64,000 bases of DNA from Chamaelirium japonicum (taxonomy: Eukaryota; Streptophyta; Magnoliopsida; Liliales; Melanthiaceae), in the NCBI GenBank assembly GCA_947650365.1, contig OX393549.1, positions 31,853,126 through 31,917,125 of the forward strand, in the 5' to 3' direction. Shown here in pieces: positions 2,752 to 60,368 of the stretch (positions are counted from its first letter, which is position 1; the number at the start of each line of letters is the position of its first letter). The notes beneath the pieces were generated by a model. It did not search any database. It was given only the letters and a program-made list of their open reading frames with translations, and was not told where the DNA came from. The position numbers and the translations under genes are program-made.

Positions 2752-5700
2752 CCTCCCTATCTCGGATTTCTCTCAACCACTCACCCGAGCTCTCCCCTCT
2801 CTCTCGGATCCTCTCTCTCTCTTCCTCTCAGATCTTACCCCCCTCTCTCACCCAACCCTCTCTCTCTCTCTTGAACCCAAATCGAACCCGATCCGACCCG
2901 ATTTCCCCCCCCAAACTCGACGCTGTCCTACCCATCCCCTGCGACCTGCTCTTCCCTCATCGTCCCACCCCCTTGCACTGTCGCTCTCCCCTGTCCTCCA
3001 CTGTACTTCCCTCACCTCTCCCTCTCTTTCCCTGCGACCCCATTCCCCTTTGTACCGGCGCCCCTTTTCCCCATTTTAAAACCCAGATCCAGCCCGACCC
3101 CCTCAACACTTCTCCGATCGCCCTCTCTCTCTCTCTCTCTCTTTCCCTCTTTCAATCTCTCTCTCCCTCGTGGTGTGTGTGTGGGTGCGGCAGCCGGAGC
3201 GCAGCCGACCGGAGGAGAGCCGCGCCGATACCGGAGAAGGAGCCATCGGTCGGAAAAGGAGCTGTAACCTGAGCTGCCGCCGACTTTTTTCCTCGACTAA
3301 ACGGTCAGCCTTCCCTCCTCCTTGCGCTCTCTTTTTTTGTTTTGCGAAACAGACCGGCCCCCTCCCCTATTCCCTTTTTCTTCTTCTTTTTGTATGAATT
3401 TGGCCGACCCCAACCCCGGTGGGCTTCGCCCTGTTGCAACCATGGTTGCCGACGGTTTGGCTACCGGTGGTCAGGCACCCGGTGGCCGGCAGCTGTATAG
3501 TCGGTAAGACCCAATCTGACCAACTCAACCCCCTGTATTTTTCTTCTTTGAAGCGGCAATGGATGCCGACCATGTTGCTGGTGGCTATGCAACCGACAAG
3601 GGCCCACCTAGCGTCGGTTTTCCCTTTTTCCTTGTACCGTGCTGAGATGGCGGTCGGTAGCCTGACCACCGACGGCTAGGCGACAGGTAGCACCCGACCG
3701 CCCTCGGCTTGACACCAGCTCGCACCCCACCACCAACTTGCCGAGCCTCTTTTTTTTTCCTTGTAGTAGCCATCGTCGGTCTTTGATCAACGACGGAGCC
3801 TGATCAATGTCAGTTATCCTCCTTTATTTTCCCATTTATGTCGCGACTGTCATTGCCCGGCAGCCAGTTGATGTTTAGGTTGTTGATCATTGAAAACCGT
3901 GGAACCTTGGATCATGTTTAGGTTAGGATTCCTGCGACATTTGGTAGCCAATGGCGCATCTTCTATTGTCACCTTTTTCAGCTATCGTCCACAGAATGTC
4001 GTGCTACACACGACGACGCATCACTCAACGATCATTCGCCAAACCTAGAATCCGACCAGGTAAGGCAAAATAGTTATCGCCAACCCAAGCACATGCTTAG
4101 TAAGGCTTGTCAGATTGTCACCATGCCAAACCGACCAAATCCGCACCAAGTCCGAGATCGTCTCGGGTGGATGACGAATCAACCTCGACCATGATCTGAA
4201 CCCTATAGCAATTGCCTTTGTTCTAAATAATAGTCTAGTAATATGTGTGTGTGCACACTTGTCAGACTTTGTACGCGTTAATCGAGCGAAGGTGGATTAG
4301 GAGCAATCGACGGGAGTTCGAGCACACTTTCCAGGTGACACTGCATGCTGTTTAGCTAATTAATTGTGCTATTATAGAAATTAAGGGTAGGTGTCCATAA
4401 CGCTGCATGCGGGTCTCGCCGAACATCGTCGCATGTGGTCGAGTGGACCCACCGCCTTGCATGCGGAGTCGTAAGTCCGGCGACGCATGCTTAATAATAT
4501 AATTTAATAATAAAATTTCTGATTGCTTGGGCATCGTAAGTAGGAATTCCCCTTAATATTAAAAATTAATAATTAAATAATAATTATCGGGCTCACTCTC
4601 CTGGATGGAGTGTGGAGACCCAGGCACACGGGAATACGGGCGAGAGTAAATTCTATTGTTATTGTGGTGCATGAGTTGTGAGCGGGGTGCGAATCCCGGG
4701 GTAAAACATCGAAATTGCTTTATTATTATACTGGTGTGATATTCTAACCTGTGGAAAGATTCTGACCCCGTGCGCGCAAGGGCCGTGAACCAGCCTACGC
4801 GCACAGCCAAAGATTAGTAGGTCAGGGGGTCACGGGCATGAATTGTAGTAAAGCCAATAGGTGGTGCCCTCGAAGAGGGATTGGCCTAGCAATCTTGTCT
4901 CGGGATAGTTGAAGCCCCCAAGGAAAGCAAGTTGGGCGGTAGAGCTCCACCGTGAAAGACGGGAAACCCCTTATGATCATATGAGTGACTTTGACTTTGC
5001 GCATGGTGTCGGAGTATGCGCGGTGAGAGAGTTGGCCCTCTACATCGAAAGAAAAGGCCCTATAGTAATGCCCGACCGGGAGCAGGATGAACAAAATATC
5101 TGGAGTTCACATTGAGTGTGTTTAATTTTATTAATTGTAAAATGGTACTCTCGATAACTTAGTAATAGTAGGAATTGTATACAAATGTAGAAACTGCATG
5201 GACACTTACGACGTGATTAAAAACGTAGTTGGACAATTAGAATAATCAGTAAACTGTTTATAAAATACGGGCGTCATTAATTACCTAGGCAGTTAGCTTG
5301 TCACTAGCCATTTATTTGGCTAATCTCCCAATTAATTTTGAGGGCTACACATTCCCACGAGTAGACTCTTCTGCAGGTTCGGAGACTCAGGGGTAGCTGC
5401 AGCACGAGGCCAGCTGCGAAGTTAGGACGGTGGTAGAGTTTCGATTTCAGTCTGTCGTGTAGTAGTACTGTTTCTTTTTGGCATTGTAATCGAACTAAGT
5501 TTGGCTTAGTGTATGTTATTAATGGCAATGATACAACTGTGTTCTTTTTGGATAGGCTTCCCCTCAAGGCCCCAAGCCTAGGGTAGCTCACTATAAAAAA
5601 TATAAGATATAAAATGATCTAATTGACTAGTCCCATAGATAGGACCTTTAAACCAGTGCCCATGTGCTAGAGAGCGGGCGAGGCTACTCGGCTCGCCGTC

Positions 5701-8862: not shown

Positions 8863-9274
8863 TGTTAGAATTGGTGAGGTCTACAGCTCGTAAAACCTAT
8901 AGTTTAGCTATGTATGGTTGATAGTATAAGATTGCATCTAGGTACGTACCTTAGTACGTGTTCTGATTACAGAACAGAGAGCCATGGCTACATGGTAATC
9001 CTCTTGAGTGGGAGACTCAAGGGACTGGTCCCATGTAACCAAAATACGTTCGCAGCTCTGATTAGGGTTGGTCGCCCTATCAGGTTAAGCTGTTGGGATG
9101 ACAGAGCGTGGGTGTCTCCACCAAGGTCATTACCAGGCACAGTGTCTGTGGCCGAACGGAACCAACACGGTGCACAGATCGATGAGCAGACATCGGTGCA
9201 CTAAACCGTGTTTCTGCTTAAGGGTAAAACGGTCCTAAACCCTGAGGAACCATGTCTGGTGGACTAACCAGTTG
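8863..9274 (+). repeat. Copia LTR, first part
   Basis: This stretch matches the reverse complement of about 44,640-45,080 over its whole length, for example 'gactggtcccatgtaacc' and 'ctacatggtaatcc'. The match continues up to the gypsy insertion near 9,274. Confidence 0.7.
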
Positions 9275-11131
9275 TGTGGTTGTGAGCGCGGAAAAAGATT
9301 CGGGTCGTCTTTATTGCGGATCACACGAGATTACAAATTTTCTTTGATCAGGAGATTGTGGGAGAGATCCTCTGGGGGGTCCCTTTGATCCGCGTCTCCA
9401 CGTGGTATTCGTGCGAGAGCTTTGAAGGGGTTGCCCAGGACAGGGGTCTTTACAGGGTGAGGATTTTTGAGAGGCTAAGGAGTTTCCGCCGTTGATTTTG
9501 TCCCGTCCGTGCTTCGCGCTTTCTCGGCTAGGGAGGCTTTGGGCTTCGTTCCTCGGTCTTCGTGTCTTCCTCGATCCTTGCTCGACCTCGGCGTCCTTGA
9601 TCGTCGGTTCGCGGCGTCGATCGTGTTTTTGGCGTCAGCTTTGGCTTTAGCTTTCGGCTTTGGCGTAGCTTTGGCGTTTGCTTTGCTTTGGCGCTTGCGC
9701 TTGAACGTAGGCGGGTAGAGACTTGCGATGCTTTAGTTCTTCCGGACTTCGCGTCGTATCGGCTAGAACGTGTGGTGCTTTGCTCGTGACCGTCGTAGTT
9801 GCTTGGCTTTGGCACGTGCGTTGCTTTAGCGCAGGCTTTACCGGTGCGTCTGCTTTGGTTTCTTGCGTTGGCTTTGGCTTTGGCTTTGGCTTTGACTCGA
9901 TCTTCTTTTCGAACGGTGAAGGCTACTTCTGCGAGGCTTCTTGATTCTTCCGGCTTCCTCGACGGTTGTGGCGTCGGCTTGGCTTCTCGGTGGGGGTAGC
10001 ACCGATCCTTGTGCGACGGTTATAGCGTCGGCTTTTGTTGATGAAGACGGCGGGTGTAGCACCGATCCCCGTGCGACGGTTGTAGCGCCGACTTTTGTTG
10101 ATGAAGACGGCGGGGGTAGCACCGATCTCCGCACGACGGTTGTTGCGTCGGCTTTTGTTGACGAAGACGACAGGGGTAGCACCGGCTTCAGGCCTTCTTC
10201 TCCAAGCTTTCTTCTTCGTGCGAGGAGTCGACGCCTTTGTTGAAGACGACGAGTGTTGTCGGCTTCGATCTTCTTCTCCGGCCTTTGCTTATGGCGTCTT
10301 CGGAGCTGATGAAGATCGTTGGAGCGATCGGGTGATGACGGCTCCGGGTCTTCTTCTCCACGCTTTTTTCTTCGTGCGAGGAGTCGAAGCTCTGATCTCC
10401 GAGTGCAAGGTCTTCACGTTGATGAGGACTTGAAGGGCCAAGGACTCCCGTAGGATATGCTTGCCGTGCCTCATGAAGCCTTCGGTCTTCAAGCGTTGGA
10501 GCTTCTTCGTAGCGCTCTTTCGTCTTCAGCTTTTCCGACCTGGCGACGGTTGTGACGTCGGCTTCTTCTCCGGGCGTGTTTGGCTTGATCGGAGTTGAAG
10601 GCTTCTTTTGGAGATGGCGGGTGTAACACCGATCTCTATGCGACGGTTGTAGCGTCGGATTTTGTTGATGAAGATGGCGGGGGTAGCACCGATCTCCGCA
10701 CGATGGTTGTAGCGTCGGCTTTTGTTGACGAAGACGGCAGGGGTAGCACCGGCTTCAGGCCTTCTTCTCCAAGCTTTCTTCTTCGTGCGAGGAGTCGATG
10801 CCTTTGTTGAAGACGACGGGTGTTGTCGGCTTCGATCTTCTTCTCCGGCCTTTGCTTATGGCTTCTTCGGAGTTGATGAAGATCGTTGGAGAAGTCGGGA
10901 TGACGACGACTCCGGGTCTTCTTCTCCAAACTTTCTTCTTCGTGCGAGGAGTCAAAGCTTTGATCTTCGAGTGCAAGGTCTTCACGTTGATGAGGACTTG
11001 AAGGGCCAAGGATTCCCGTAGGACGTGCTTGCCGTGCCTCGTGAAGCCTTTGGTCTTCGAGAGCGAGGCTCTTTCTTCGTAGAGCCTTCGCGTCTCTTGT
11101 TTTCGACCCTTTGTGCCTTCCCCCACCCCTT

Positions 11132-15000: not shown

Positions 15001-15410
15001 TCGAGAAGGCTTCTGTAGCGAACCTTGCGAAGCAGCGTGCAGAGCTGGCGACGTGTCGGAAGCTGACGGCTTCTCTACCTATGGAGTTGCAGCGCGTGTA
15101 AGCTGCGGGAGGCGAGCCGCTTCGGTGCCTCTAGGACTTCAACTTGCTACTCATGCGTTGCTTCGAAAGCTGGAGTCCCGTTTGGAGAAAGCTCGAGCAA
15201 CCAAGAAGACTTTTGCAATGGAGCTTGCAAAGAAGCGGGAGGAGCTTACAAATCGCCGAGAGCTGGTGGTTTCTTGCCTTTCGGAGTTGCACTGCGTGGG
15301 TGCCTCGAGAGATGAGCTGTGGCAGCACCGGGAGCTGGTGGCTTAACGGAGGCTGACGGCTTCTCGATCCCCGGAGTGGAACTTGCGTCTTTTCTGGGCT
15401 CATTTTCTGG
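12080..15410 (+). pseudogene. Relic of the antisense gene of the gypsy derivative
   Basis: This stretch occupies the position and strand of the plant-mobile-domain gene of the 16.6-kb element. A TATA-like CTATTTATAGG lies at 12,562-12,572. GC-rich low-complexity sequence (12,640-13,090) and three copies of a 'tttttgctgtggccccc' block (13,146, 13,206, 13,538) follow. There is a ~97-bp tandem duplication at 14,150-14,334, and then frames rich in Leu, Glu, Ala and Arg (14,788-15,346) that look like the coiled-coil end of the intact version. The mobile domain itself is not recognised. It is broken and is part of a retroelement, not a host gene. Confidence 0.5.
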
Positions 15411-50530: not shown

Positions 50531-51138
50531 TTTTATGCATATCCCATAAATCTGTAATTAGCCCCCATTTCCAACAAACTTGTACACACTCCTCTTTTTT
50601 TTTCTTACCCTATTGCTATCCCAAAAATGCCCTTCCTTACACCGGACCTTCAATACACCCCAGTTAAATAGCCCGCCCCAACTTGATTATACACCAATCA
50701 AACACATACCCCCTTAAATATATCTCAATTATATGCACTCTTGAATACACCCCTCTTAAATAAACCCCATGCAGTTGGCTGGTACTTGAAGGCACAAGTA
50801 GCGCTGCAACTTGGGCGGGCCAACCCGAGTCCAACCCAGATTTGGGTGGGCTAACCCGCGCCCAACCCGAATTATTTTTTCTCTACCATATTGAAGCCGA
50901 TCAACCCACCCCGCACTGCCCAATCAACCCGGCCAACCCGACGGGTTGGGGTTGGGCTTGGACTAAGGAAGTTCAAAGAGACCTTGGGTTGGGGGTACAA
51001 AAGAGGTTGAGTTAGGACTTTGGGGTTTGGGGTACAAAAGAAAAGGGCATTGTTGGTATTAAAGAATTGTTGAGTAAGATATTGAGAAACGATAGGGAGC
51101 CGGTGGCTAATTACAGATTTCTGGGGTACGAATAAAAT
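50531..51138. mobile_element. Fold-back element with nested repeat
   Basis: The left arm 'cccataaatctgtaattagc' (from about 50,542) pairs with the right arm 'gctaattacagatttctggg' (about 51,105). The interior at 50,800-50,960 holds its own inverted motif (caacccgag...cgacgggttgggg), perhaps an older insertion. No coding sequence. Confidence 0.55.
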
Positions 51139-51184
51139 GTCTCTATTTAAATTGTAAACCATATAAAATGTATAATAAAACTAG

Positions 51185-51209
51185 TAAAAACGCCGTGCCC
51201 AAGGTCACG
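51185..51209 (-). other. Helitron 3' terminal hairpin
   Basis: An imperfect 18-nt palindrome, CCGTGCCCAAGGTCACGG (plus, 51,192-51,209), separated from the terminal CTAG by seven to eight bases. Confidence 0.7.
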
Positions 51210-51740
51210 GAAAAGATTTCTAGGACGACGAAAATATTTCGAGGGCGGGGATAATTTTTAGAGGGTGGCGGCAACATTTTGGGGGCGGCAAAAGATTAAT
51301 TTTGAGGACGTGAAAATTTTTTAAGGGAGGGGTCAATATTTTAAGGATGGTAACAATAATTTAAAAGTGGTAATAATTTAAAAGAGATGATAATATTTCC
51401 ATAAAAGCATTTTGGCAAGGACACATACATTAGTTGGGGGCGACAAAATTCAATAATAACATAACTGCACTAATATTTTGTGTGAATGGACTCACGGAGT
51501 ACGTCGTATGCTCACAATATTTTGATGTAGGTGGGCCCCACTGATGAATCGGGAAACATTTTGAGGGCGGTGATAATATTTAGAGGATGACAGCAATATT
51601 TCAAGGGAGGCAATGATAGTTCATGGGCAATGATATTATTTCAAAGGGGGGCATAATATTTCGAGGGTGGCAACGAAACATTTCAAGAGCGGTAACAATA
51701 TTATTAGGGGGTCCAATAATTCGAGGGTGACAATAATTCA
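51210..51740. repeat. Degenerate short repeats (aatatttcgagggtgg)
   Basis: The phrase 'atttcgagggtggcaacaat' and variants recur at irregular 20-60 bp spacing next to the Helitron 3' end. Two similar phrases (gacaatatttcgaggcgagg) lie at 54,809-54,830 and 54,990-55,030, on the other side of the captured genes. Confidence 0.65.
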
Positions 51741-51870
51741 AGAAGGGGGCGCACAGTGGGTGCAGAGAGAGAGGGGGCACAACGGGCAGGGTGGGTTTCG
51801 ATTTTCAAGAGAGTCACGGGGTGGGTATTGAACAGAGGTCTGGCGGCAGCCAGAGGAGGCTACGATGGGG

Positions 51871-51877
<7 letters not shown>

Positions 51878-51932
<55 letters not shown>
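51878..51932. repeat. (GA)n microsatellite
   Basis: An uninterrupted GA run of about 54 bp; shorter runs follow at 51,980-52,018. Confidence 0.97.
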
Positions 51933-51933
<1 letters not shown>

Positions 51934-52083
51934 ACCTGCGGGGCGAACAGAGGTTGGGCTGGGGCACACAACGGGTGCAAAGAGAGAAAGAAAGAGAGAC
52001 AGAGAGAGAGAGAAAGAGATTATATTTTGGGATGTCTCAGCTAGCATCTTCAGCAAAATTCCCACATAGGAAATATTTTTGGA

Positions 52084-52226
52084 TAAATTATGCTTTGCCC
52101 CCCTGAAGTTTAGCTCAAAAACACTTGATCCCCCTATAGTTAAAAAACTACATTTTGCACCCCTTCAATTCAATTTCGATTAGATAAAAATTACCAAATG
52201 AAGAAATACATTTTGCCCCCCTATGT
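52084..52226. mobile_element. MITE piece inside the Helitron
   Basis: 'taaattatgctttgcccccc' (from about 52,084) and 'agtttagctcaaaaacactt' match the left arm of the MITE at 61,848. The right side ends in 'ttttgcccccctatg' rather than the expected inverted arm, so it is incomplete or rearranged. Confidence 0.6.
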
Positions 52227-52336
52227 TACTTATGTTTGTTCATTCTCGGCACTCGTTTTTCTAATCCAGAAAGTATTCTGTGCGGGATCTTTCGAGTGAA
52301 TTACCAATGGAGATTTTGTTGTGTAAACCAATGCAG

Positions 52337-52441
52337 GTTCGCATCTTGTGTAACGACTGTGGAGCAAACTCTGAAGTACAGTATCATGTGGTTGCTCGGA
52401 AATGCCCCAACTGCAGGTCCTATAATACTCGCCAGAAATGA
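52337..52441 (+). pseudogene. Captured last exon of a MIEL1/RCHY1-type E3 ligase
   Basis: After an acceptor-like ATGCAG, 34 codons and a stop read VRILCNDCGANSEV, then QYHVVARKCPNCRSYNTRQK. This is the zinc-ribbon end of plant CHY/RING-type ubiquitin ligases (MIEL1/RZFP34 group): two CxxC pairs and the SYNTR tail are all kept. The upstream CHY and RING exons are absent, so it cannot be a working ligase. It lies within the Helitron and is best read as a captured gene fragment. Confidence 0.8.
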
Positions 52442-52511
52442 AGGCACAGATGAGATGAAATCGTCCACCACGACTCATACTTGTTGGTGCACTGTATGGT
52501 GTCAGCCCATA

Positions 52512-52625
52512 CCAGACTTGACGAAGTATATGATGCAAATGTATCACAGCTGCTTCCTCTCCTGGAACCCTATGATGCTGCCTGCCAAACTGAGACTGGA
52601 GCAATCACAGCTGTCCGCATCAAAG
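52512..52625 (+). pseudogene. Unidentified exon-like fragment
   Basis: An acceptor-like TGTCAG is followed by an open frame encoding AHTRLDEVYDANVSQLL, then PLLEPYDAACQTETG and AITAVRIKG. Its composition looks like real globular protein rather than chance, but I cannot name the family. It overlaps slightly, on the other strand, the coiled-coil fragment. Confidence 0.35.
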
Positions 52626-52905
52626 GCACTTTTCCTCTCCAAAGATGACTTCAGATCACTATACTCGCCAATAAGATCATTCAATTTTCTCTCGGTCTTA
52701 TTTTTTTCTGCATGTAATGACCTGATTTTATCATTCAGATCCTCACTTGAAGATTCCTTTGAATGTAATTCTCCTCTAGCATTGAAGATTTAATTTTCGA
52801 CTGTTCGACAATCGAATTTGCTTCTGCGAGATCTGCTTTAGTTTGGTCAAAAATAGAGATCAAGTTCTTATATTCTGATTCGTTATCCAGATCTGTCGGC
52901 ACTGC
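52617..52905 (-). pseudogene. Captured coiled-coil protein fragment
   Basis: The minus strand encodes DLDNESEYKNLISIFDQTK, then ADLAEANSIVEQSK with heptad-like spacing, and after a frame change DLNDKIRSLHAEKNKTERKL. It reads like a long coiled coil of a cytoskeletal or kinesin-type protein, but the gene is not identified. It is open over parts only and so is a fragment. Confidence 0.5.
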
Positions 52906-53677
52906 AGCAGGCCGCCTTCGGCGGCAACACAGCTGTCGGCAAAAAAGCGGACCGCCTTCGAAAGGTACACACAAAAACAGATTCTCTCACTACAAAACTT
53001 CACAAATAGATGTCTACAGAGACAGCTTAAGGAAACAGATCCAAGCCTCATTCGTCACCCTTCCCAACTTAAAGAGAGGAAAAAGGATCCACACCCAACT
53101 CAAAAAATACACAAAAAGAAAGAAAATCCTCAAAAACATTGCCTCACTTTTGGAAAGTACTGTACAATTTTTAAAAAAACTCTTCTAACTCCTAGCACAA
53201 CCACCTAAATCTTAAAATCTTCGTACATCGCCAACCTCAATTACAGACTTGGTGTATGTAAAACCAGAAAAATTGAAGCCCCCGCATCCAAAACTTCAGG
53301 CTTTGTAGCTATTTCTCCAAGCTGTAGATATCAGAAAAACAAAATTGATGGTAAAACTGGAGCAAATGCTATACAGGTCAGAGGCCCGTGAAAACGGCTG
53401 GGGTCATTCAGATTCCTGAGTCGTCCGGTGCGTTGGAGGATTCCTCTACATTTAGGTAATCAATGCTTCTTGTTAATCTTTATTTCTTTCTACTTTATTG
53501 ACCAAGCAAGTCAGAAAATCAAGATACAAAATTTTGAATAGAAAACACAGAGTTAGTGTTTCATGATACGTCTCTTCCCCGAAATTATTCAGTGTCACGG
53601 AAGATATAACTGACTCCTACTTAGCTGTATTTATAGTACGAAGAAAACATAGAGTAACTCAAAATGTTATCTTTCAG
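52906..53677. other. Helitron interior, mostly unresolved
   Basis: AT-rich sequence. A possible exon at 53,390-53,453 encodes KTAGVIQIPESSGALEDSST and is followed by a GTAAT donor-like sequence, but I cannot name it. Nothing else is supported. Confidence 0.35.
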
Positions 53678-53869
53678 GTTCTTGCGGAGATAAGACCATA
53701 CCTCGAAGGCACAGGAGGTGGAGTGCTCGAGCTTGTTCAGATCAATGGTTATGTCGTGAGGGTCCGACTCAGTGGACCTGCAGCCGAGGTGATGACGGTT
53801 CATGTAGCTCTAACCCAGAAACCGAAGGAAAAAATACCTTCCATTGCAGCCGTCCAGTTGGTGGAATAG
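53678..53869 (+). pseudogene. Captured last exon of a plastid NFU (NifU-like) protein
   Basis: After an acceptor (CTTTCAG at 53,677) 63 codons and a stop read [20 protein letters not shown], then [20 protein letters not shown] and [18 protein letters not shown]. This is the C-terminal NifU-like domain of chloroplast NFU1-3, the one that has lost the CxxC iron-sulphur motif (GPAA takes its place). The N-terminal plastid signal and the active NFU domain are absent here, so it is a gene fragment. The original gene takes part in plastid Fe-S cluster delivery. Confidence 0.85.
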
Positions 53870-54093
53870 TCAGGCTCAAGCTACTAATCTTATAATTGTT
53901 TGTATTGAATCAGAATCAGTGCTAAAAAACACAGCATATGATCTTACAGAGGTTAACTTTTTTAACAAAACAGTATTATCCCATCAGATGGGGTCGCCCA
54001 TGGATCACAACTCTAATAAAAAAGGATTCATAACATACATAAACAGTATTTTACAGTGAGGTTGCAAAAAAGTTGTACCATTCTGGTGCTTAA

Positions 54094-54735
54094 TTAATCA
54101 GATAACCCAATATCTCGAACACCAACATGAATCTGCAATCTGTTCATCATCTTCCGCAGCTCCTCCAACCTCTTGCACTCCCCATATCGGGTTAGAAAGC
54201 CCTCCAACACCCGAAATCCCCTCTCGGAAGGAACCCTCCCTCTCTCGACCATCTGTTTGAAACACCGGTAGGCCTCCGCCACCTTCCCGCTGTAGCACAA
54301 CCCTATCACCAACATATCCAATGTGTGTTGATGAGGGCAGCAGCCCTTCTCCACCAAGTAATCCCATAGCTCCAGACCCAGATCGGACCGTCGGTCCTCG
54401 CAGAAATGCTTCATCAGCAGCATCACCATCCGTGTCCTCGGGACGAAGTTCCTCTCCACCATTGTCTGGTAGACCTTGTAAACATCCTCCGACCATCCAA
54501 ACCTCTTCAATCCGCAGAACAGGGTATTGTAGGTCACATCGTCCACCCCGATTTCCTTCGTCTCCATCTCCTCCATCAGCTCCATTGCAGACTTGAGATC
54601 TCCGGTCCTCATCAGCGCACCCATCAGGGCATTGTAAGCTCCCCTATCCGGCGTCAGCCCTCTCTCACACATTTCATCAAACAGACTGCGGGCACGAAAT
54701 GGGTTCCGGGCGATGCCAGCCCCATGAACCAATGT
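54094..54735 (-). pseudogene. Captured 3' end of a PPR protein gene
   Basis: About 210 codons open to a stop on the minus strand encode at least five pentatricopeptide repeats. Examples are RARSLFDEMCERGLTPD, YNALMGALMRTGDLKSAMEL, VTYNTLFCGLKRFGWSEDV and EAYRCFKQMVERGRVPSE. P-type spacing (35 residues) fits an organelle RNA-binding protein. The N-terminal repeats and targeting signal are missing; upstream of about 54,735 the frame passes into Helitron repeat sequence. The reading frame is intact over the captured part, which suggests recent capture. Confidence 0.85.
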
Positions 54736-54779
54736 TTGTCCATTTTGGGGATGAGTGCAATTCATGGATTGGATATGGT

Positions 54780-55240
54780 TACAACAGACAACTGCGATCA
54801 TCAAGGTAGATGACAATATTTCGAGGCGAGGACAATATTTGTGTATTAAAAATCTGTACAACAGACAACTGCGATCATCAAGGTATGGTTGAAGCATTGT
54901 ATGGTAACAAAATTGCACTCTGTTTTTTTTTTCCTTCCATGTATGGTTGAAGCATTATACAACAGACAACTGCGATCATCAAGGTAGATGACAATATTTC
55001 GAGGCGAGGACAATATTTCGAGGCGAGGACAATCAGTTAATAATTGTGTATTAAAAATATGTGGACATTAATATCATCTTTCCACATTTCTACAAATCAA
55101 CCATACATGGAAGGAAAAAAAAAACCCATATTAAAAGATTTCGAGATTTCGAGATCGACGAAAATATCATCTTTCCACATGTCCGCAGCTCACTTTCCAC
55201 CCCGGCTGCCATATTTTCGTCGTTCTCGAAATCTTTTTTA
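54780..55240. repeat. Short direct and inverted repeats
   Basis: 'acaacagacaactgcgatca' occurs at 54,780, 54,857 and 54,960. 'ccttccatgtatggttga' (54,935) is inverted at 55,098. 'gatttcgagatcgacgaaaa' (55,147) is inverted at 55,207-55,230. Confidence 0.8.
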
Positions 55241-55870
55241 ATACGGGCATTCAATGCCTTGTATCAACATGTTCACATAGATGGGATGACCTTATATCAA
55301 TGTCTCAACCAGACCAAAACAGAAGATCAACTAAAAGCAAAATAATTAAAAAATGAGACGGGAAAACAATATGGATGAAGAAAAGATGGACGAAAAAATA
55401 CATTTTTTTGCATAGGCAATAATATGTATGCAAAAAAAAAAAAAACAGAGGATCAAATTTTTGCATCCATATTTTTGGAAAATATGGATGCACACTTCGG
55501 GCTCAGAGAATTCATAGGCAAAATCATTCAAAAATCAGATTGGTAAAAAAAATGTATGATTTTTTGCATTTAAAATGGCTGATTTTTTCTATGAAAACTC
55601 CGAGCCCGCAATGAGTCCATAGCCCGGAAAAAAATCAACACACTTCGGGCTTGGAGTATTCCTAGGCAAAATCAGTGATTTTAAATGCAAAATCATTCAA
55701 AAATAAGACAAAAAAAAATATGGATGCACCATATTTGACCGCCTTAACCGTAACCAAAAATCTAATTTGGAATATATGTTATCGAAAATTTCAAATCCTT
55801 GAAACAACAGTCAATAGTCTCATTCTAACCAAATGAATCCATATGAACCTAAATTCAAGACGGGTAAAAT

Positions 55871-56850
55871 ATCTGGATGTACACTTCGGGCTCAGTATTC
55901 ATAGGCAAAATCATTAAAAAATAAGACGTGTACAAAATATGTATAATTTTTTGTATTTAAAATGACTGATTTTGTCTATGATGCAACAGTCTCATTCTAG
56001 CCAAAATTTTACAACATTGTACTATAATGTTATAAAAATAATACAACTCAAGGGACAGAGGCCCCTCTTCAGCGATGGAATGTAAAGGAATCTCACCTCG
56101 TATTGGTCCGCACCTTGGTGGTGTGCGGTGAAGTCTCCGCTGATTGCCAAAAAAAAAAAACAAATGATCAACGTTTTTTTAAAAAACAGAAGATCAATTT
56201 GCGAGAGAGTGAGAGGTAGAGATGGTACCTGGGGGTGTGAATTGGGTTTTGTCCAGTCAGGATCAAGTCTCTCTATTCAATGAGCCTAACATTCCATGAT
56301 GCTACGACTGCAGAAACACAAAATCAGGGATTAAAATCAAAACCAGCAATGAAAAATCTGGATGTACACTTCGGGCTCAGAGTATTCATAGGCAAAATCA
56401 TTAAAAAATAAGACAGGTAAAAAATATATATGATTTTTTACATTTAAAATGATTGATTTTGTCTATGAAGCAACAGTCTCATTCTAGCCAAAATTTCACA
56501 ACATTGTACTATAATGCTAAAAAAATAATGCAACTCAAGGGACAGAGGCCCCTCCTCAGTGATGGAATGTAAAGGAATCTCACCTCATATTGGTCCGCGC
56601 CTTGGTGGTGTGCGGTGAAGCCTCCGCTGACTGCCAAAAAAAAAAAAACAAATGATCAACTTTTTCTGAAAAAATAGAAAATCAATTTGCGAGAGAGTGA
56701 GGTAGAGATGGCACCTGGGGGCGTGAGCTGGGTTTTGTCCATTCAGGATCAAGTCTCTCTATTCAATGAGCCTAACATTCCATGATGCTACGACTGCAGA
56801 AACACAAAATCAGGAATTAAAATCAAAATCAGCAATGAAAAATCTGATTG
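55871..56850. repeat. ~485-bp tandem duplication
   Basis: Two units (55,871-56,355 and 56,356-56,850) share 'ggatgtacacttcgggctca', 'ggacagaggcccctc', 'ccttggtggtgtgcggtgaa' and 'aatgagcctaacattcc'. A weaker third copy of the first part lies at 55,485-55,700. No gene recognised. Confidence 0.88.
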
Positions 56851-57150
56851 TGTAAGGGTTAAAAAAGTTTCACTGATTAGCACAATACAACTGTTTTGGT
56901 AGAGAGAGATTAGAAGACATTATCTGCATGAAAGGGTTAAAAAAATGAAAGAGTAATTGACAGCACCGTACCTGGGCGATGGGCAATGGTCATTCGAGGG
57001 AGAGAGGTAGAGAGATAGTGATTTCGTGTTATAAAGGGTAATGATCAACATAATATTGGGAGAGGAGGTGCTCGATCCCTCCCCCTTCGTCTTCTTCCTC
57101 GACCGTTGCTGCAGATCCCCGTGCCCAAGGGCACGAAAAATCCCGTGCCC

Positions 57151-57516
57151 AAATATAATTCGATCATGGATAAGCATGATATTATTGCATTATCTGTAAC
57201 TGATATATCAGAATAGCACGATAGAGAATTAAACATTAGAACCCTAAAAAAAAAGGCTTACTCAAATCAGGTTTATATAAGCATAAGGTCGGCGCCCCGG
57301 TGATGAGCTCCAGCAGCAGCAGACTGAAGTTGTACAAATATAATTCGATCATGGATAAGCATGATATTATTGCATTATCTGTAACTGATATATCAGAATA
57401 GCACGATAGAGAATTAAACATTAGAACCCTAAAAAAAAGGCTTACTCAAATCAGGTTTAAGCATAAGGTCGGCGCCCTGGTGATGAGCTCTAGAAGCAGC
57501 AGACTGAAGCTGTACA
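57151..57516 (-). pseudogene. Duplicated receptor-like kinase fragment
   Basis: A 181-185 bp block is present twice in tandem (57,151-57,335 and 57,336-57,516). On the minus strand each copy contains FSLLLLELITGAPTLCL or its variant, and the right-hand copy extends upstream to KKCDVYSFSLLLLELITRAP. This is kinase subdomain IX of plant receptor-like kinases (usual form SDVYSFGVLLLELLTGKAP). The remainder of the kinase is absent. The piece lies within the Helitron. Confidence 0.65.
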
Positions 57517-57554
57517 CATCGCACTTCTTCAACGCCATCCCTGTCCGGAGGTAG

Positions 57555-57591
<37 letters not shown>

Positions 57592-57929
57592 AAAAGAAGA
57601 AAAAATGGATCTGAAACAGAGAGAGGAAAAAAAAAGAAAAAATCGATCTGAAATCATGGGCTGTCGTCAGCCGTTGGAGAGCCTCCCTCCCGGATGCCAT
57701 TCCGCCGACAACCTCGACCTCTAGAGCCTGAAATAGAGAAGGAAGTGGGGAAAAAAAAAGTAGAGAGAGAGAGGACCTGTTGCTGCCTAGGGTTTTAGCA
57801 TTGAGTGGGGAAGAGAGTGTGCAGGAGCTCCGTGCGATGGATCACAACCTCACAGAAGAAAAAAAACAGAGACCAGAGGACCTGAAACCACAGATCAGAA
57901 GTTCCATGTGTGTGTATGTATGTGTGTGT

Positions 57930-57976
<47 letters not shown>
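57930..57976. repeat. (GA)n microsatellite
   Basis: A GA run of about 46 bp next to a (TG)n-like 'tgtgtgtatgtatgtgtgtg'. Another GA run lies at 57,555-57,584. Confidence 0.95.
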
Positions 57977-57978
<2 letters not shown>

Positions 57979-58139
57979 GAGACTGTGTGCCACCCCGAAG
58001 AGGGACTTAAGGGAAAAGAGTTTGGAGAGGAAGCAGAGAGGGTAGGAGCCTGGATCCACCGCTTCCACCACCAACGTCCCCGTCCTCTCTGCGATCAACG
58101 GGAGGAAGGGACCGGCCACCCTAGTTAACCCCACCCCTC

Positions 58140-58265
58140 CGATCTACGCATCTTGGCCCCGATCGGCACCGCCCCACCTCCGATCTACGCATCTCGGCCC
58201 CGATCGGCACCGCCCCACCTCCGATCTACGCATCTCGGCCCCGATCGGCACCGCCCTGCCTTAAT
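58140..58265. repeat. ~41-bp tandem repeat (3 units)
   Basis: Units of 'cgatctacgcatctcggccc' followed by 'cgatcggcaccgccccacct'. Confidence 0.9.
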
Positions 58266-58379
58266 TCTTCCTCCTTCCTCCTGTGAGAGAGAGAGAGAGA
58301 GAGAGAGGAATCGACAGAGAGGGGAACCGACTGCGGGTGGAGGGCGTGGGGCTTCGACTTCCAAGAGAGAGAGAGACGG

Positions 58380-58595
58380 GGCGGCTCCGACTTCTGAGAG
58401 AGAGAGAAGCGAGAGGGGGGGCGCACAACCGGCAGGCTTCCAAAATATAGAGGGTTTACAGGGCGAGAGGGGCGGCGGCTCCGACTTCCGAGAGAGAGAG
58501 AAGCGAGAGGGGGGGCGCACAGCCGGCAGGCTTCCAAAATATAGAGGGTTTACAGGGCGAGAGGGGCGCGGGCTCCGACTTCCGAGAGGGAGAGA
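58380..58595. repeat. ~110-bp tandem duplication
   Basis: The block with 'gggggcgcacaaccggcagg' and 'atatagagggtttacagggc' is present twice (from about 58,395 and 58,500), with purine-rich joins. Frames open here on both strands are repeat-driven. Confidence 0.85.
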
Positions 58596-58946
58596 GAGCG
58601 AGAGATTTATGAGAGGATTTAATAGTTTGAGTGGGATTCAATGGTTAGGATTAGAAAATGAACGAATGTGATCGAGTCGGAATTAAATAGACTGAGTAAG
58701 ATTCACTTAGCTCTGGATGAAACGGACGACTGTGATCGAGTCTCCAAGTTTATCCTCCTCCTCTAGATAAATCTGAGCCGCTCCTTTGTCTCAGTTCATT
58801 TGTCCCCCCACAACCGTCGTCCCTTATTATATAGATGTATGTAAACTTTACAAAACTTATTTTTTAGACGAAATACAAAGCATAGCCACTCAGCACGCGA
58901 CACGTACACCAAGTACCATGTACACTGAAAAGTCCCAACATCCGTT

Positions 58947-60368
58947 TCATTCCGTGTGCTTCTCTTGCTCGCGCCTTTCCGGTTCCTGATGGGCCCCCTC
59001 CACCACTTCCCCTCCCTTCGCCTGCGCGCTGGTGACCGGCGAAGCACTCGACCCCGCGCCTCCGCCGATCAGAGAGGTGACCACCCCTCTGATCTTCTCC
59101 ACCATCCCCTTCCCGTCGCTCCCCTCGCCGGATCCCGTCGCCGGAGCCCTCTCCGCCGCCGCCACCTCCTCATCCTTCGTCTTGTGGACCGACCCCGATA
59201 TCACCTCGGACAGAGCCCTGTCCTCCTCCCCCGGCCTCAGCTTCTCCGCCAAGTACTCCCTCACCGAGACCCCCTTATCGACCTGCCCCGCTTTTCCATC
59301 GCCGCCACTAGCTCCGGTGGCCCCGCTCTGCTGCGCCTTCCCCACCCCCGGCCCCGCCACCTTCCCATACACCGTCGACACCGCGGACACCGCCGTGTCT
59401 TTCACCGCGTAGACGGTGGAGGAGAGCTTCTCGGTGTAACTCTGTTGCTTCGCGGCCGGTTCGGCACTCTCTCCGGGTTTCTTTTCAGGACCGGGCCGGG
59501 TTTTTTCTGGAGGAGATAACTGGTCGACGCGGTCGTGGGTCCCCGTAGGCGGAGACCGCTCTCCTCCTTGCTTTCCCTCGGGTCCGTCCGAGACTTTCAG
59601 AGCCTGGAAAGAGCCGACAACAGTCGACATCGTCGCCTCATCACCACCTGTTAGACACGTCAGCAAAAACATGTTAGTCGGTGCATCACGTGCAATACAC
59701 GCACGGCTCAACGCTAGGTCGATTCTGGTCACCTGCAGTGAACTTCTCCGACCTGGACTCCGGTACAGGGGGGTACTCCTCTTCCAGACTCCCCTTGCTG
59801 ATCCCCGAAGTGCCCCTCTCTCGCTCCAAACCGTCGTCTTGGCCTCCAACTACGTGTGGGCCAGCGGGGGTCCCGGACTCTGCAGCCACAGAGATCGATA
59901 AGAGGGTAACGGGAGGATCACGCCGTAGGACCATATCGGGAAGAAAAATTTTAGAGAGAGAGAGAGAGGAACATACTAGGGCCACCGTGGGCTTGAGGGT
60001 CCACTTCGACCTCTTCGTCGTCCTCTTCACATCCTTCCTCTTCTTCCACGTGGCCGTTAGCTTGATCGTGGCCGTCATCGCCATGGCCGTGCTTCACCTT
60101 GCTGCTGAAGGTGTCCTTGAACCTCTTCACCTTGTCCTTCATCTTCTTCATGACCGGCTTCTTCTCGTGGTGCACTTCTTCACCCGCGGTATCTGCATGG
60201 ATAACAGAAGGGACATAACAGTAATATCACAGTGTCCGGACGTACGGGGATATATAGGAGCCATGGCTTGTAGGTTGAGCCGAACCCTTTACCTGTATGC
60301 GGACCCACAGCGTGCGGGCGTTCTTCTTCGTAAATACGGCCATGCGGAGGGGCAATTGCGGGATCCAT
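58947..60368 (-). CDS. LTI65/RD29/CAP160-family stress-response protein
   Basis: Four exons read on the minus strand: 60,368-60,293, 60,192-59,977, 59,879-59,733 and 59,647-58,947, all with GT-AG introns of 100, 97 and 85 nt. They give 379 residues with consistent phases. The start MDPAIAPPHG, the basic HHEKKPVMKKMKDKVKRFKD, the His/acidic stretch and the VDPQAHGGP end of exon 2 match the LTI65 N-terminus. Exon 4 has YTEKLSSTVYAVKDTAVSAV (CAP160-type repeat) and the signature VREYLAEKLRPGEEDRALSE. The family is hydrophilic, induced by ABA, cold and drought, and thought to protect cells during dehydration. It is shorter than the Arabidopsis members (over 600 residues) but looks complete. No breaks seen. 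Confidence 0.9.

What the first reader, a model, noticed from the sequence alone, without database searches (positions are those of the whole stretch)
51181..58835. A 7.65-kb Helitron that has gathered pieces of at least five host genes
Between an A|TC start and a hairpin-CTAG|T end on the minus strand lie a MIEL1-type zinc-ribbon exon (+), an NFU last exon (+), a PPR 3' end (-), a receptor-kinase piece (-, duplicated) and a coiled-coil piece (-). Several are last exons that begin exactly at splice acceptors and keep their stop codons, so they could give chimeric transcripts if read through. The family pattern (Helitron gene capture) is established; this particular set is read from the sequence.
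Basis: partly seen in the sequence, partly recalled or inferred. Interest (0 to 1): 0.82.

Follow-up and report, generated by a model that had tools for sequence, protein, structure and literature searches.

The report
Helitron assembled from host gene ends
A 7.7-kb plant rolling-circle transposon (Helitron) has picked up the tail ends of several host genes step by step and has copied the whole collection to other places in the genome; this is a well-documented example of something Helitrons are already known to do.

Summary
Window 51181-58835 (minus strand) is one Helitron. It starts with TC after a host A, and ends with a hairpin plus CTAG before a host T. In 40 of 40 scored hits (of 595 candidates) the 3' boundary falls on 51181. 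A second complete copy on another contig is 98.2% identical over 7,274 aligned columns. A third copy is read only in part.

The captures need correcting. The NFU exon and PPR end are one capture from a tail-to-tail gene pair at C7, where the PPR frame is intact (498 aa). MIEL1 and the coiled-coil piece map to one contig (C1080) in the same convergent order. The kinase piece is weakly supported and repetitive.

Other loci carry nested subsets of these pieces, and an internal 3' hairpin without CTAG lies at 57117-57140. Both point to stepwise capture and fusion of two lineages. The captured codons look neutral. Transcription was not tested. An empty site was not found (inconclusive). Known kind.

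The parts
51181..58835 (-). whole composite Helitron (5' end at 58835, 3' end at 51181)
   Evidence: boundaries by family copies; full second copy L017 = C2:35583755-35591309, whose first two bases read TA, not TC
58801..58835 (-). 5' terminus, TCTATATAATAAGGGACG..., preceded by host A at 58836
51181..51214 (-). 3' terminus: hairpin then GTTTTTACTAG, followed by host T at 51180
57117..57140 (-). internal pseudo-3' terminus: 24 of 24 bases of the relatives' 3' hairpin motif, followed by ATCTGC instead of TTTTTACTAG
   Evidence: motif taken from relatives listed; 0 matches with up to 3 mismatches in 200 block shuffles of the element
57275..57560 (-). kinase subdomain-like piece (DVYSFSLLLLELITRAPT), duplicated with a spacing of 180-185 bp
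   Evidence: no Pfam match; parent not resolved
55863..56851 (.). two tandem copies of a ~487-bp unit without a recognised gene
53455..54735 (.). single captured segment of a convergent NFU/PPR gene pair; source C7 = L043 2254-3621 (97.4% and 98.4% in its two parts), with ~83 bp of the source missing at 53869-53873
53677..53868 (+). NFU (chloroplast NifU-like) last exon, AG before it, stop kept
54094..54735 (-). 3' end of PPR gene (214 codons with the stop; the parent frame has 498 aa), stop kept
53083..53455 (-). gene end: last 15 codons (LNVEESSNAPDDSGI*) and 3' UTR; same segment at C5:37230778-37231494 and in a Rep-bearing Helitron at C4:32476321-32481208
52545..52960 (-). coiled-coil coding piece (the reading frame changes between about 52735 and 52790); source candidate C1080:3090-3364 matches 52614-52887 at 96%
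52221..52560 (+). MIEL1/RCHY1-type gene 3' part; zinc-ribbon exon 52337-52441; source candidate C1080:9080-9416 (94%) with a zf-CHY exon 5.7 kb upstream on the same strand
58947..60226 (-). host LTI65/RD29-like gene whose stop lies about 110 bp upstream of the element's 5' end (neighbour, not part of the element)

Best explanation
A non-autonomous Helitron, presumably moved in trans by the genome's Rep-helicase Helitrons, that was built in steps. Step A: an element with this 5' end passed its own 3' terminator (its CTAG-less hairpin survives at 57117-57140). It went on to carry a 1.47-kb segment of a tail-to-tail NFU/PPR gene pair, and that founder was amplified. Step B: a second Helitron line gathered a MIEL1/coiled-coil segment, then the 3' end of another gene. 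Step C: the two lines were joined at 53455 (2-bp CC overlap). The joined element transposed as one unit to at least two further sites. The gene pieces are passengers. SHOWN here: one unit with both ends, a second full copy, the NFU/PPR source with an intact PPR frame, and capture edges shared by many copies. SHOWN BY COORDINATES ONLY: nested subsets of pieces at loci that were not read. INFERRED: trans-mobilisation, terminator bypass as the capture step, nesting plus deletion as the joining step, and that A and B were separate lines before the join.
For: Second full copy L017, 98.24% over 7,274 aligned columns; identity by 500-bp bins 0.974-0.994. Third copy at C1: 5' end, kinase piece, PPR and NFU read in L019, with MIEL1, coiled-coil and gene-end at C1:46681317-46682523 by search; its 3' terminus was not read. 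NFU/PPR source L043: 498-aa PPR frame convergent with the NFU exon. Eight other copies with the segment start at L043 2156 and the 3 composites at 2254 (the short partial match L047, which starts at 2598, is left out). 11 sites differ from L043 and are alike in every one of the 8-11 copies that cover them. Subset ladder by coordinates: MIEL1+coiled-coil at 5 loci (C413, C287, C3:51.586, C1:8.739, C7:50.317); gene end as well at C6, C12 (coiled-coil 84%), L030 (degenerate coiled-coil) and C11 (no coiled-coil hit); NFU/PPR as well in the 3 composites. Pseudo-terminus. Rep domains: 150 of 315 candidates scored, all 150 above cut-off. Precedents, passages seen: Helraiser terminator bypass; stepwise capture and nested termini in maize.
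Against: The A/B join at 53455 is at no Helitron end on either side, so it needs an added deletion, template switch or end-joining. C12 has PPR, gene-end, coiled-coil and MIEL1 pieces but no NFU hit, with a Rep domain (3 stops) 5.5 kb away, so the order of steps may differ. Only 40 of 1,061 candidates were scored. Adjacency at loci that were not fetched is inferred from coordinates. No empty site was found. MIEL1 and coiled-coil are 5.7 kb apart on C1080 but about 55 bp apart in the element, and C1080 was not read. C5 was not read, so the direction of transfer for that piece is inferred from what it lacks. Tree support for the three composites as a group is only 0.75.
Confidence: 0.86

Rival explanations
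1. Several separate or nested insertions and pseudogene scraps happen to lie between a 5' end and a 3' end that do not belong together.
For: The element is a mosaic with a pseudo-terminus and internal repeats.
Against: L017 carries the same mosaic in the same order between the same ends at a different site, at 0.974-0.994 identity in every 500-bp bin.
Confidence: 0.03
2. The pieces were captured as filler during double-strand-break repair inside an existing Helitron, not by terminator bypass.
For: 2-bp overlap at the 53455 join and 2-bp overlap at a 131-bp deletion in L030 (read). Capture edges are not at Helitron ends.
Against: The CTAG-less hairpin at 57117-57140 and two variants of 3' terminus behind one kind of 5' end fit bypass. 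A long contiguous segment with intron fits read-through of neighbouring DNA.
Confidence: 0.35
3. The element carries a working chimeric gene or exon-shuffled transcript kept by selection, perhaps driven by read-through from the LTI65-like gene next to it.
For: Stops and acceptors are kept. The element lies in sense about 110 bp after the stop of a likely stress gene.
Against: PPR 9 non-synonymous: 4 synonymous and NFU 5:2 against the parent, where neutral expectation is 3.46 and 2.76 (small counts). The coiled-coil frame changes. Pieces point both ways. No expression data.
Confidence: 0.05

Closest known systems
Maize Helitrons with stepwise gene capture (Dong et al. 2011, PMC3288121; passages seen)
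   Same: Several gene pieces per element, related elements with shared pieces in different combinations, extra 3' termini of which only one keeps CTAG, a nesting model for multiple termini.
   Different: Other genome and other genes. Here one source locus (NFU/PPR) is read with an intact PPR frame, and most ends of the family that were read border TA arrays.
Helraiser/Helibat (PMC4778049; passages seen, part of the abstract among them)
   Same: 3' hairpin as terminator; bypass carries along flanking DNA; AT target.
   Different: Bat element shown by experiment; here bypass is only inferred from anatomy.
Head-to-tail Helitrons of maize (PMC2267711; passages seen)
   Same: CTAG of one element directly followed by the start of another, as in L018 and L024.
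   Different: In maize the two elements differed strongly; here the adjoining ends are alike, and what lies inside the neighbours was not compared.
MuTAnT, Mutator-like elements aimed at TA microsatellites in Medicago (PMC4486113; listing with start of abstract only)
   Same: Insertion into TA arrays.
   Different: Mutator-like DNA transposon, not a Helitron.

Membership tests
Helitron (plant, RepHel-type) | 5' TC and 3' CTAG | tested here: met
   many relatives in TA arrays read TA in place of TC
Helitron (plant, RepHel-type) | short hairpin just before the 3' end | tested here: met
Helitron (plant, RepHel-type) | inserted between host A and T, no target duplication | tested here: met
   A at 58836 and T at 51180 on the element strand; no duplication seen in the flanks printed
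Helitron (plant, RepHel-type) | copies sharing both ends at other sites | tested here: met
Helitron (plant, RepHel-type) | empty site without the element | tested here: inconclusive
   of 43 rows only the window's own crosses the join; 40 of 1,916 candidates were scored, and the left flank is itself a high-copy repeat
Helitron (plant, RepHel-type) | Rep-helicase available in the genome | tested here: met
   PF14214, 150 of 315 candidates scored, all 150 over cut-off; a partner with these exact ends was not shown
Helitron (plant, RepHel-type) | no terminal inverted repeats | tested here: met
   none of the 9 inverted pairs of at least 22 bp joins the two ends; shorter ones were not searched for
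Pack-MULE / Pack-CACTA | terminal inverted repeats and target-site duplication | tested here: not met
   (inverted repeats of 22 bp or more only)
Composite element with a selected chimeric gene | purifying selection on captured codons | tested here: not met
   no signal for the NFU and PPR pieces (small counts); other pieces not tested
Composite element with a selected chimeric gene | chimeric transcript | not testable with these tools
   no expression data

The most novel reading that the evidence does not exclude
This family uses TA microsatellites as landing pads and as a substitute 5' end. Of the ends read, 15 of 20 5' ends and 20 of 27 3' ends border a TA run, and many 5' ends read TA for TC. 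That lets elements stack head to tail and fuse. Because copies can land beside gene 3' ends, as the window copy did, they repeatedly carry off the tails of convergent gene pairs.
Probability: 0.3. Interest if true: 0.55.

Novelty: new member of a known kind. Interest (0 to 1): 0.36.

Why it matters
It gives one genome in which a source locus, partial collectors, Rep-bearing relatives and the final composite can be lined up, so the order of Helitron gene capture can be tested by comparison rather than guessed. It also cautions that neighbouring pieces in a Helitron may be one capture of a convergent gene pair, not several. The TA-array habit of the family may explain how elements come to lie end to end and merge.

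Tried and rejected
Independent capture of NFU and PPR: rejected, because one contiguous source segment covers both. L019's 3' end at its CTAGT near 53367: rejected, because MIEL1, coiled-coil and gene-end pieces follow about 4 kb further on; the CTAGT belongs to an inserted sequence starting CACTAGTG. The ORF LGEIATK...: first taken as a last exon, then found to lie beyond the stop of the C4/C5 gene end; no PDB match. C4 as the host source of that piece: rejected, because its upstream part is a Rep-Helitron 3' region, found about 3.7 kb after a Rep domain at seven loci compared; C5 is the better candidate but was not read. Kinase parent: not resolved; one 100-bp part recurs in many places, often in pairs about 275 bp apart. 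Empty site: inconclusive. L030 as a Rep-bearing relative: no Rep-like ORF recognised by eye in the listing; no profile search was run on it.
Full report
WHAT WAS CHECKED. The window lies at G000:C1:31853126-31917125 of a 1.52-Gb genome of 3,253 contigs, unnamed here. Its genes (LTI65-like, chloroplast NFU-like, PPR) mark it as a plant. On the minus strand the element begins TCTATATAATAAGGGACG at 58835 after a host A and ends ...CACGGCGTTTTTACTAG at 51181 before a host T. The 3' 120 bp gave 40 scored matches of 595 candidates. All 40 begin at the first base, and apart from the window itself they are 97-99% identical. The 5' 136 bp gave 40 scored of 1,018 candidates at 91-100%, all ending at base 131-136 of the query.

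ONE MOBILE UNIT. L017 (C2:35583755-35591309) holds everything from 51181 to 58833 in the same order; its first two bases read TA, not TC. Aligned over the whole length the two copies differ at 128 of 7,274 columns, with 0.974-0.994 identity in each 500-bp bin. Eight gaps reach 15 bp: in the window losses of 22, 42, 87 (after the NFU stop), 41, 18 and 42 bp, and in L017 losses of 250 and 91 bp. Their flanks differ: the window copy lies in sequence without a TA array, L017 in TA/GATA repeats. A third composite lies at C1:46.68-46.69 Mb. L019 shows its 5' end, kinase piece, PPR and NFU; MIEL1, coiled-coil and gene-end pieces follow at C1:46681317-46682523. Between them is about 4.1 kb of inserted DNA that begins CACTAGTG after TAG, CACTA-like by that motif alone (recalled).

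WHERE THE PIECES COME FROM. (a) NFU and PPR. Both match L043 (C7:24616000-24621000), where a 498-aa PPR frame without stops (Pfam and PDB PPR matches) runs toward an NFU last exon. The captured stretch starts at L043 2254 in the three composites and at 2156 in eight other copies: L018, L020, L021, L041, L042, L044, L045, L046. L047, a 355-bp match, was left out of that count. Several of the eight have internal losses. Eleven sites differ from L043 and are alike in every one of the 8-11 copies that cover them; this fits one founding capture, though some changes may have occurred in L043. A FastTree tree groups window, L017 and L019 with support of 0.75. Earlier exons of the NFU gene were not reached; a Copia-type retrotransposon takes up much of the region read upstream.

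(b) MIEL1 and coiled-coil. The best candidate outside the element copies is contig C1080. It has the zinc-ribbon region at 9080-9416 (94%), a zf-CHY exon at 15069-15173 on the same strand (one of 5 places from 6 candidates) and the coiled-coil stretch at 3090-3364 (96%; one of 13 places, 13 of 13 candidates). Order and relative orientation equal those in the element. The spacing does not: 5.7 kb there, about 55 bp here. The coiled-coil stretch has an equal match at C1:101171325-101171599, without a MIEL1 hit near it.

L049 (C4) shows it as an exon ending ...LNVEESSNAPDDSGI* with sequence beyond the stop. The first 293 bp of L049 recur elsewhere, and at seven loci that I compared they lie about 3.7 kb after a Rep domain on the same strand; C4 itself has a Rep domain 3.9 kb upstream. 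So C4 is a Rep-bearing Helitron that carries the gene end. C5:37230778-37231494 has the gene segment without the Rep-Helitron part, and none of the 150 scored Rep domains lies there. It is the likelier host source; it was not read.

(d) The kinase piece is short, without a Pfam match, with weak PDB matches (best E 0.078), and repetitive (54 rows from 40 scored of 47 candidates). I treat it as kinase-like only.

LADDER OF COPIES. From coordinates: MIEL1+coiled-coil at C413, C287, C3:51.586, C1:8.739 and C7:50.317. With the gene end as well at C6:16.370, at C12:4.023 (coiled-coil 84%), and with a degenerate coiled-coil in L030 (C2:12.996). C11:41.757 has MIEL1 and the gene end but no coiled-coil hit. 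NFU/PPR are added in the three composites. C12 also carries a 78-bp PPR piece but no NFU hit, and a Rep domain with three stops lies 5.5 kb away on the fitting strand. One search scored 40 of 1,061 candidates, many drawn by a short repeat at its start, so its list is a lower bound.

MECHANISM. The internal 24-base match to the relatives' 3' hairpin at 57117-57140, on the element's own strand and without CTAG, is what a bypassed terminator would leave. Bypass has been shown for Helraiser, and extra CTAG-less 3' termini are described for maize together with a nesting model. The A/B join at 53455 has a 2-bp overlap and lies at no terminus, so nesting must have been followed by a deletion, or the join came from repair or template switching. 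Candidate partner enzymes exist: 150 of 315 Rep candidates were scored, all 150 above cut-off, some in frames over 1,200 aa without stops. Which of them moves this family is not shown.

FUNCTION OF THE PIECES. Against the parent, the window's PPR piece has 9 non-synonymous and 4 synonymous changes in 214 codons (neutral ratio 3.46); NFU has 5 and 2 in 64 (2.76). These small numbers fit drift. The other pieces were not tested. The element lies in sense about 110 bp after the stop of an LTI65-like gene, so read-through is conceivable but untested.

TARGET. Among ends found by approximate search in 29 sequences (window, L017-L036, L041-L048), 15 of 20 5' ends have a TA run of at least 16 bp in the 30 bp before the motif and 20 of 27 3' ends one of at least 12 bp in the 30 bp after CTAG. 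The window has no TA run of six or more units. Some loci have like flanks (L027/L029), so they are not all independent. Where the flank is ordinary sequence (window, L036) TC is present. Behind another element's CTAG it is present in L024 but not at either place in L018. In TA arrays most copies read TA, but L032 and L011 keep TC. In three literature searches I saw no listing of a plant Helitron in TA arrays; I saw a Mutator-like family, MITEs of pineapple linked to microsatellites, and, in a reference list, a lepidopteran Helitron-like element in GAAA repeats. Papers not in the library were not seen.

VERDICT. It is a new member of a known kind, with an unusually long trail of sources and intermediates, part of which rests on coordinates of loci that were not read.

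Noticed in passing
ends listed (loci L017-L036, L041-L048): 15 of 20 5' ends and 20 of 27 3' ends of this Helitron family border (TA)n runs, and most 5' ends there read TA instead of TC.
   Followed up: partly
L018 199 and 6317; L024 153: Head-to-tail Helitrons: CTAG of one copy directly followed by the 5' end of the next, with small variation at the joint (TTATA, TATA, TCTATA).
   Followed up: partly
window 58947-60226 (-): LTI65/RD29-like gene (PF23403 and PF23399) whose stop lies about 110 bp from the element's 5' end; the insertion may lie in its 3' UTR.
   Followed up: partly
window 51000-51155: The left host flank is itself part of a very high-copy repeat (1,916 candidates, 40 scored) whose matches stop about 25-40 bp before the Helitron.
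   Followed up: no
L019 up to 3128 (C1:46.6825-46.6866 Mb): About 4.1 kb inserted inside the third composite copy, starting CACTAGTG after TAG (CACTA-like by motif, recalled).
   Followed up: no
L043 1-672 and L048: Copia-type retrotransposon with a long open frame upstream of the NFU last exon at the source locus.
   Followed up: no
C38:1.826 and 1.833 Mb, C2:78.678 Mb, C6:58.647 Mb, C40:1.333 Mb, C61:1.193 Mb: The kinase-like 100-bp stretch occurs in pairs about 275 bp apart at several loci, as if it were part of another repeat family.
   Followed up: no
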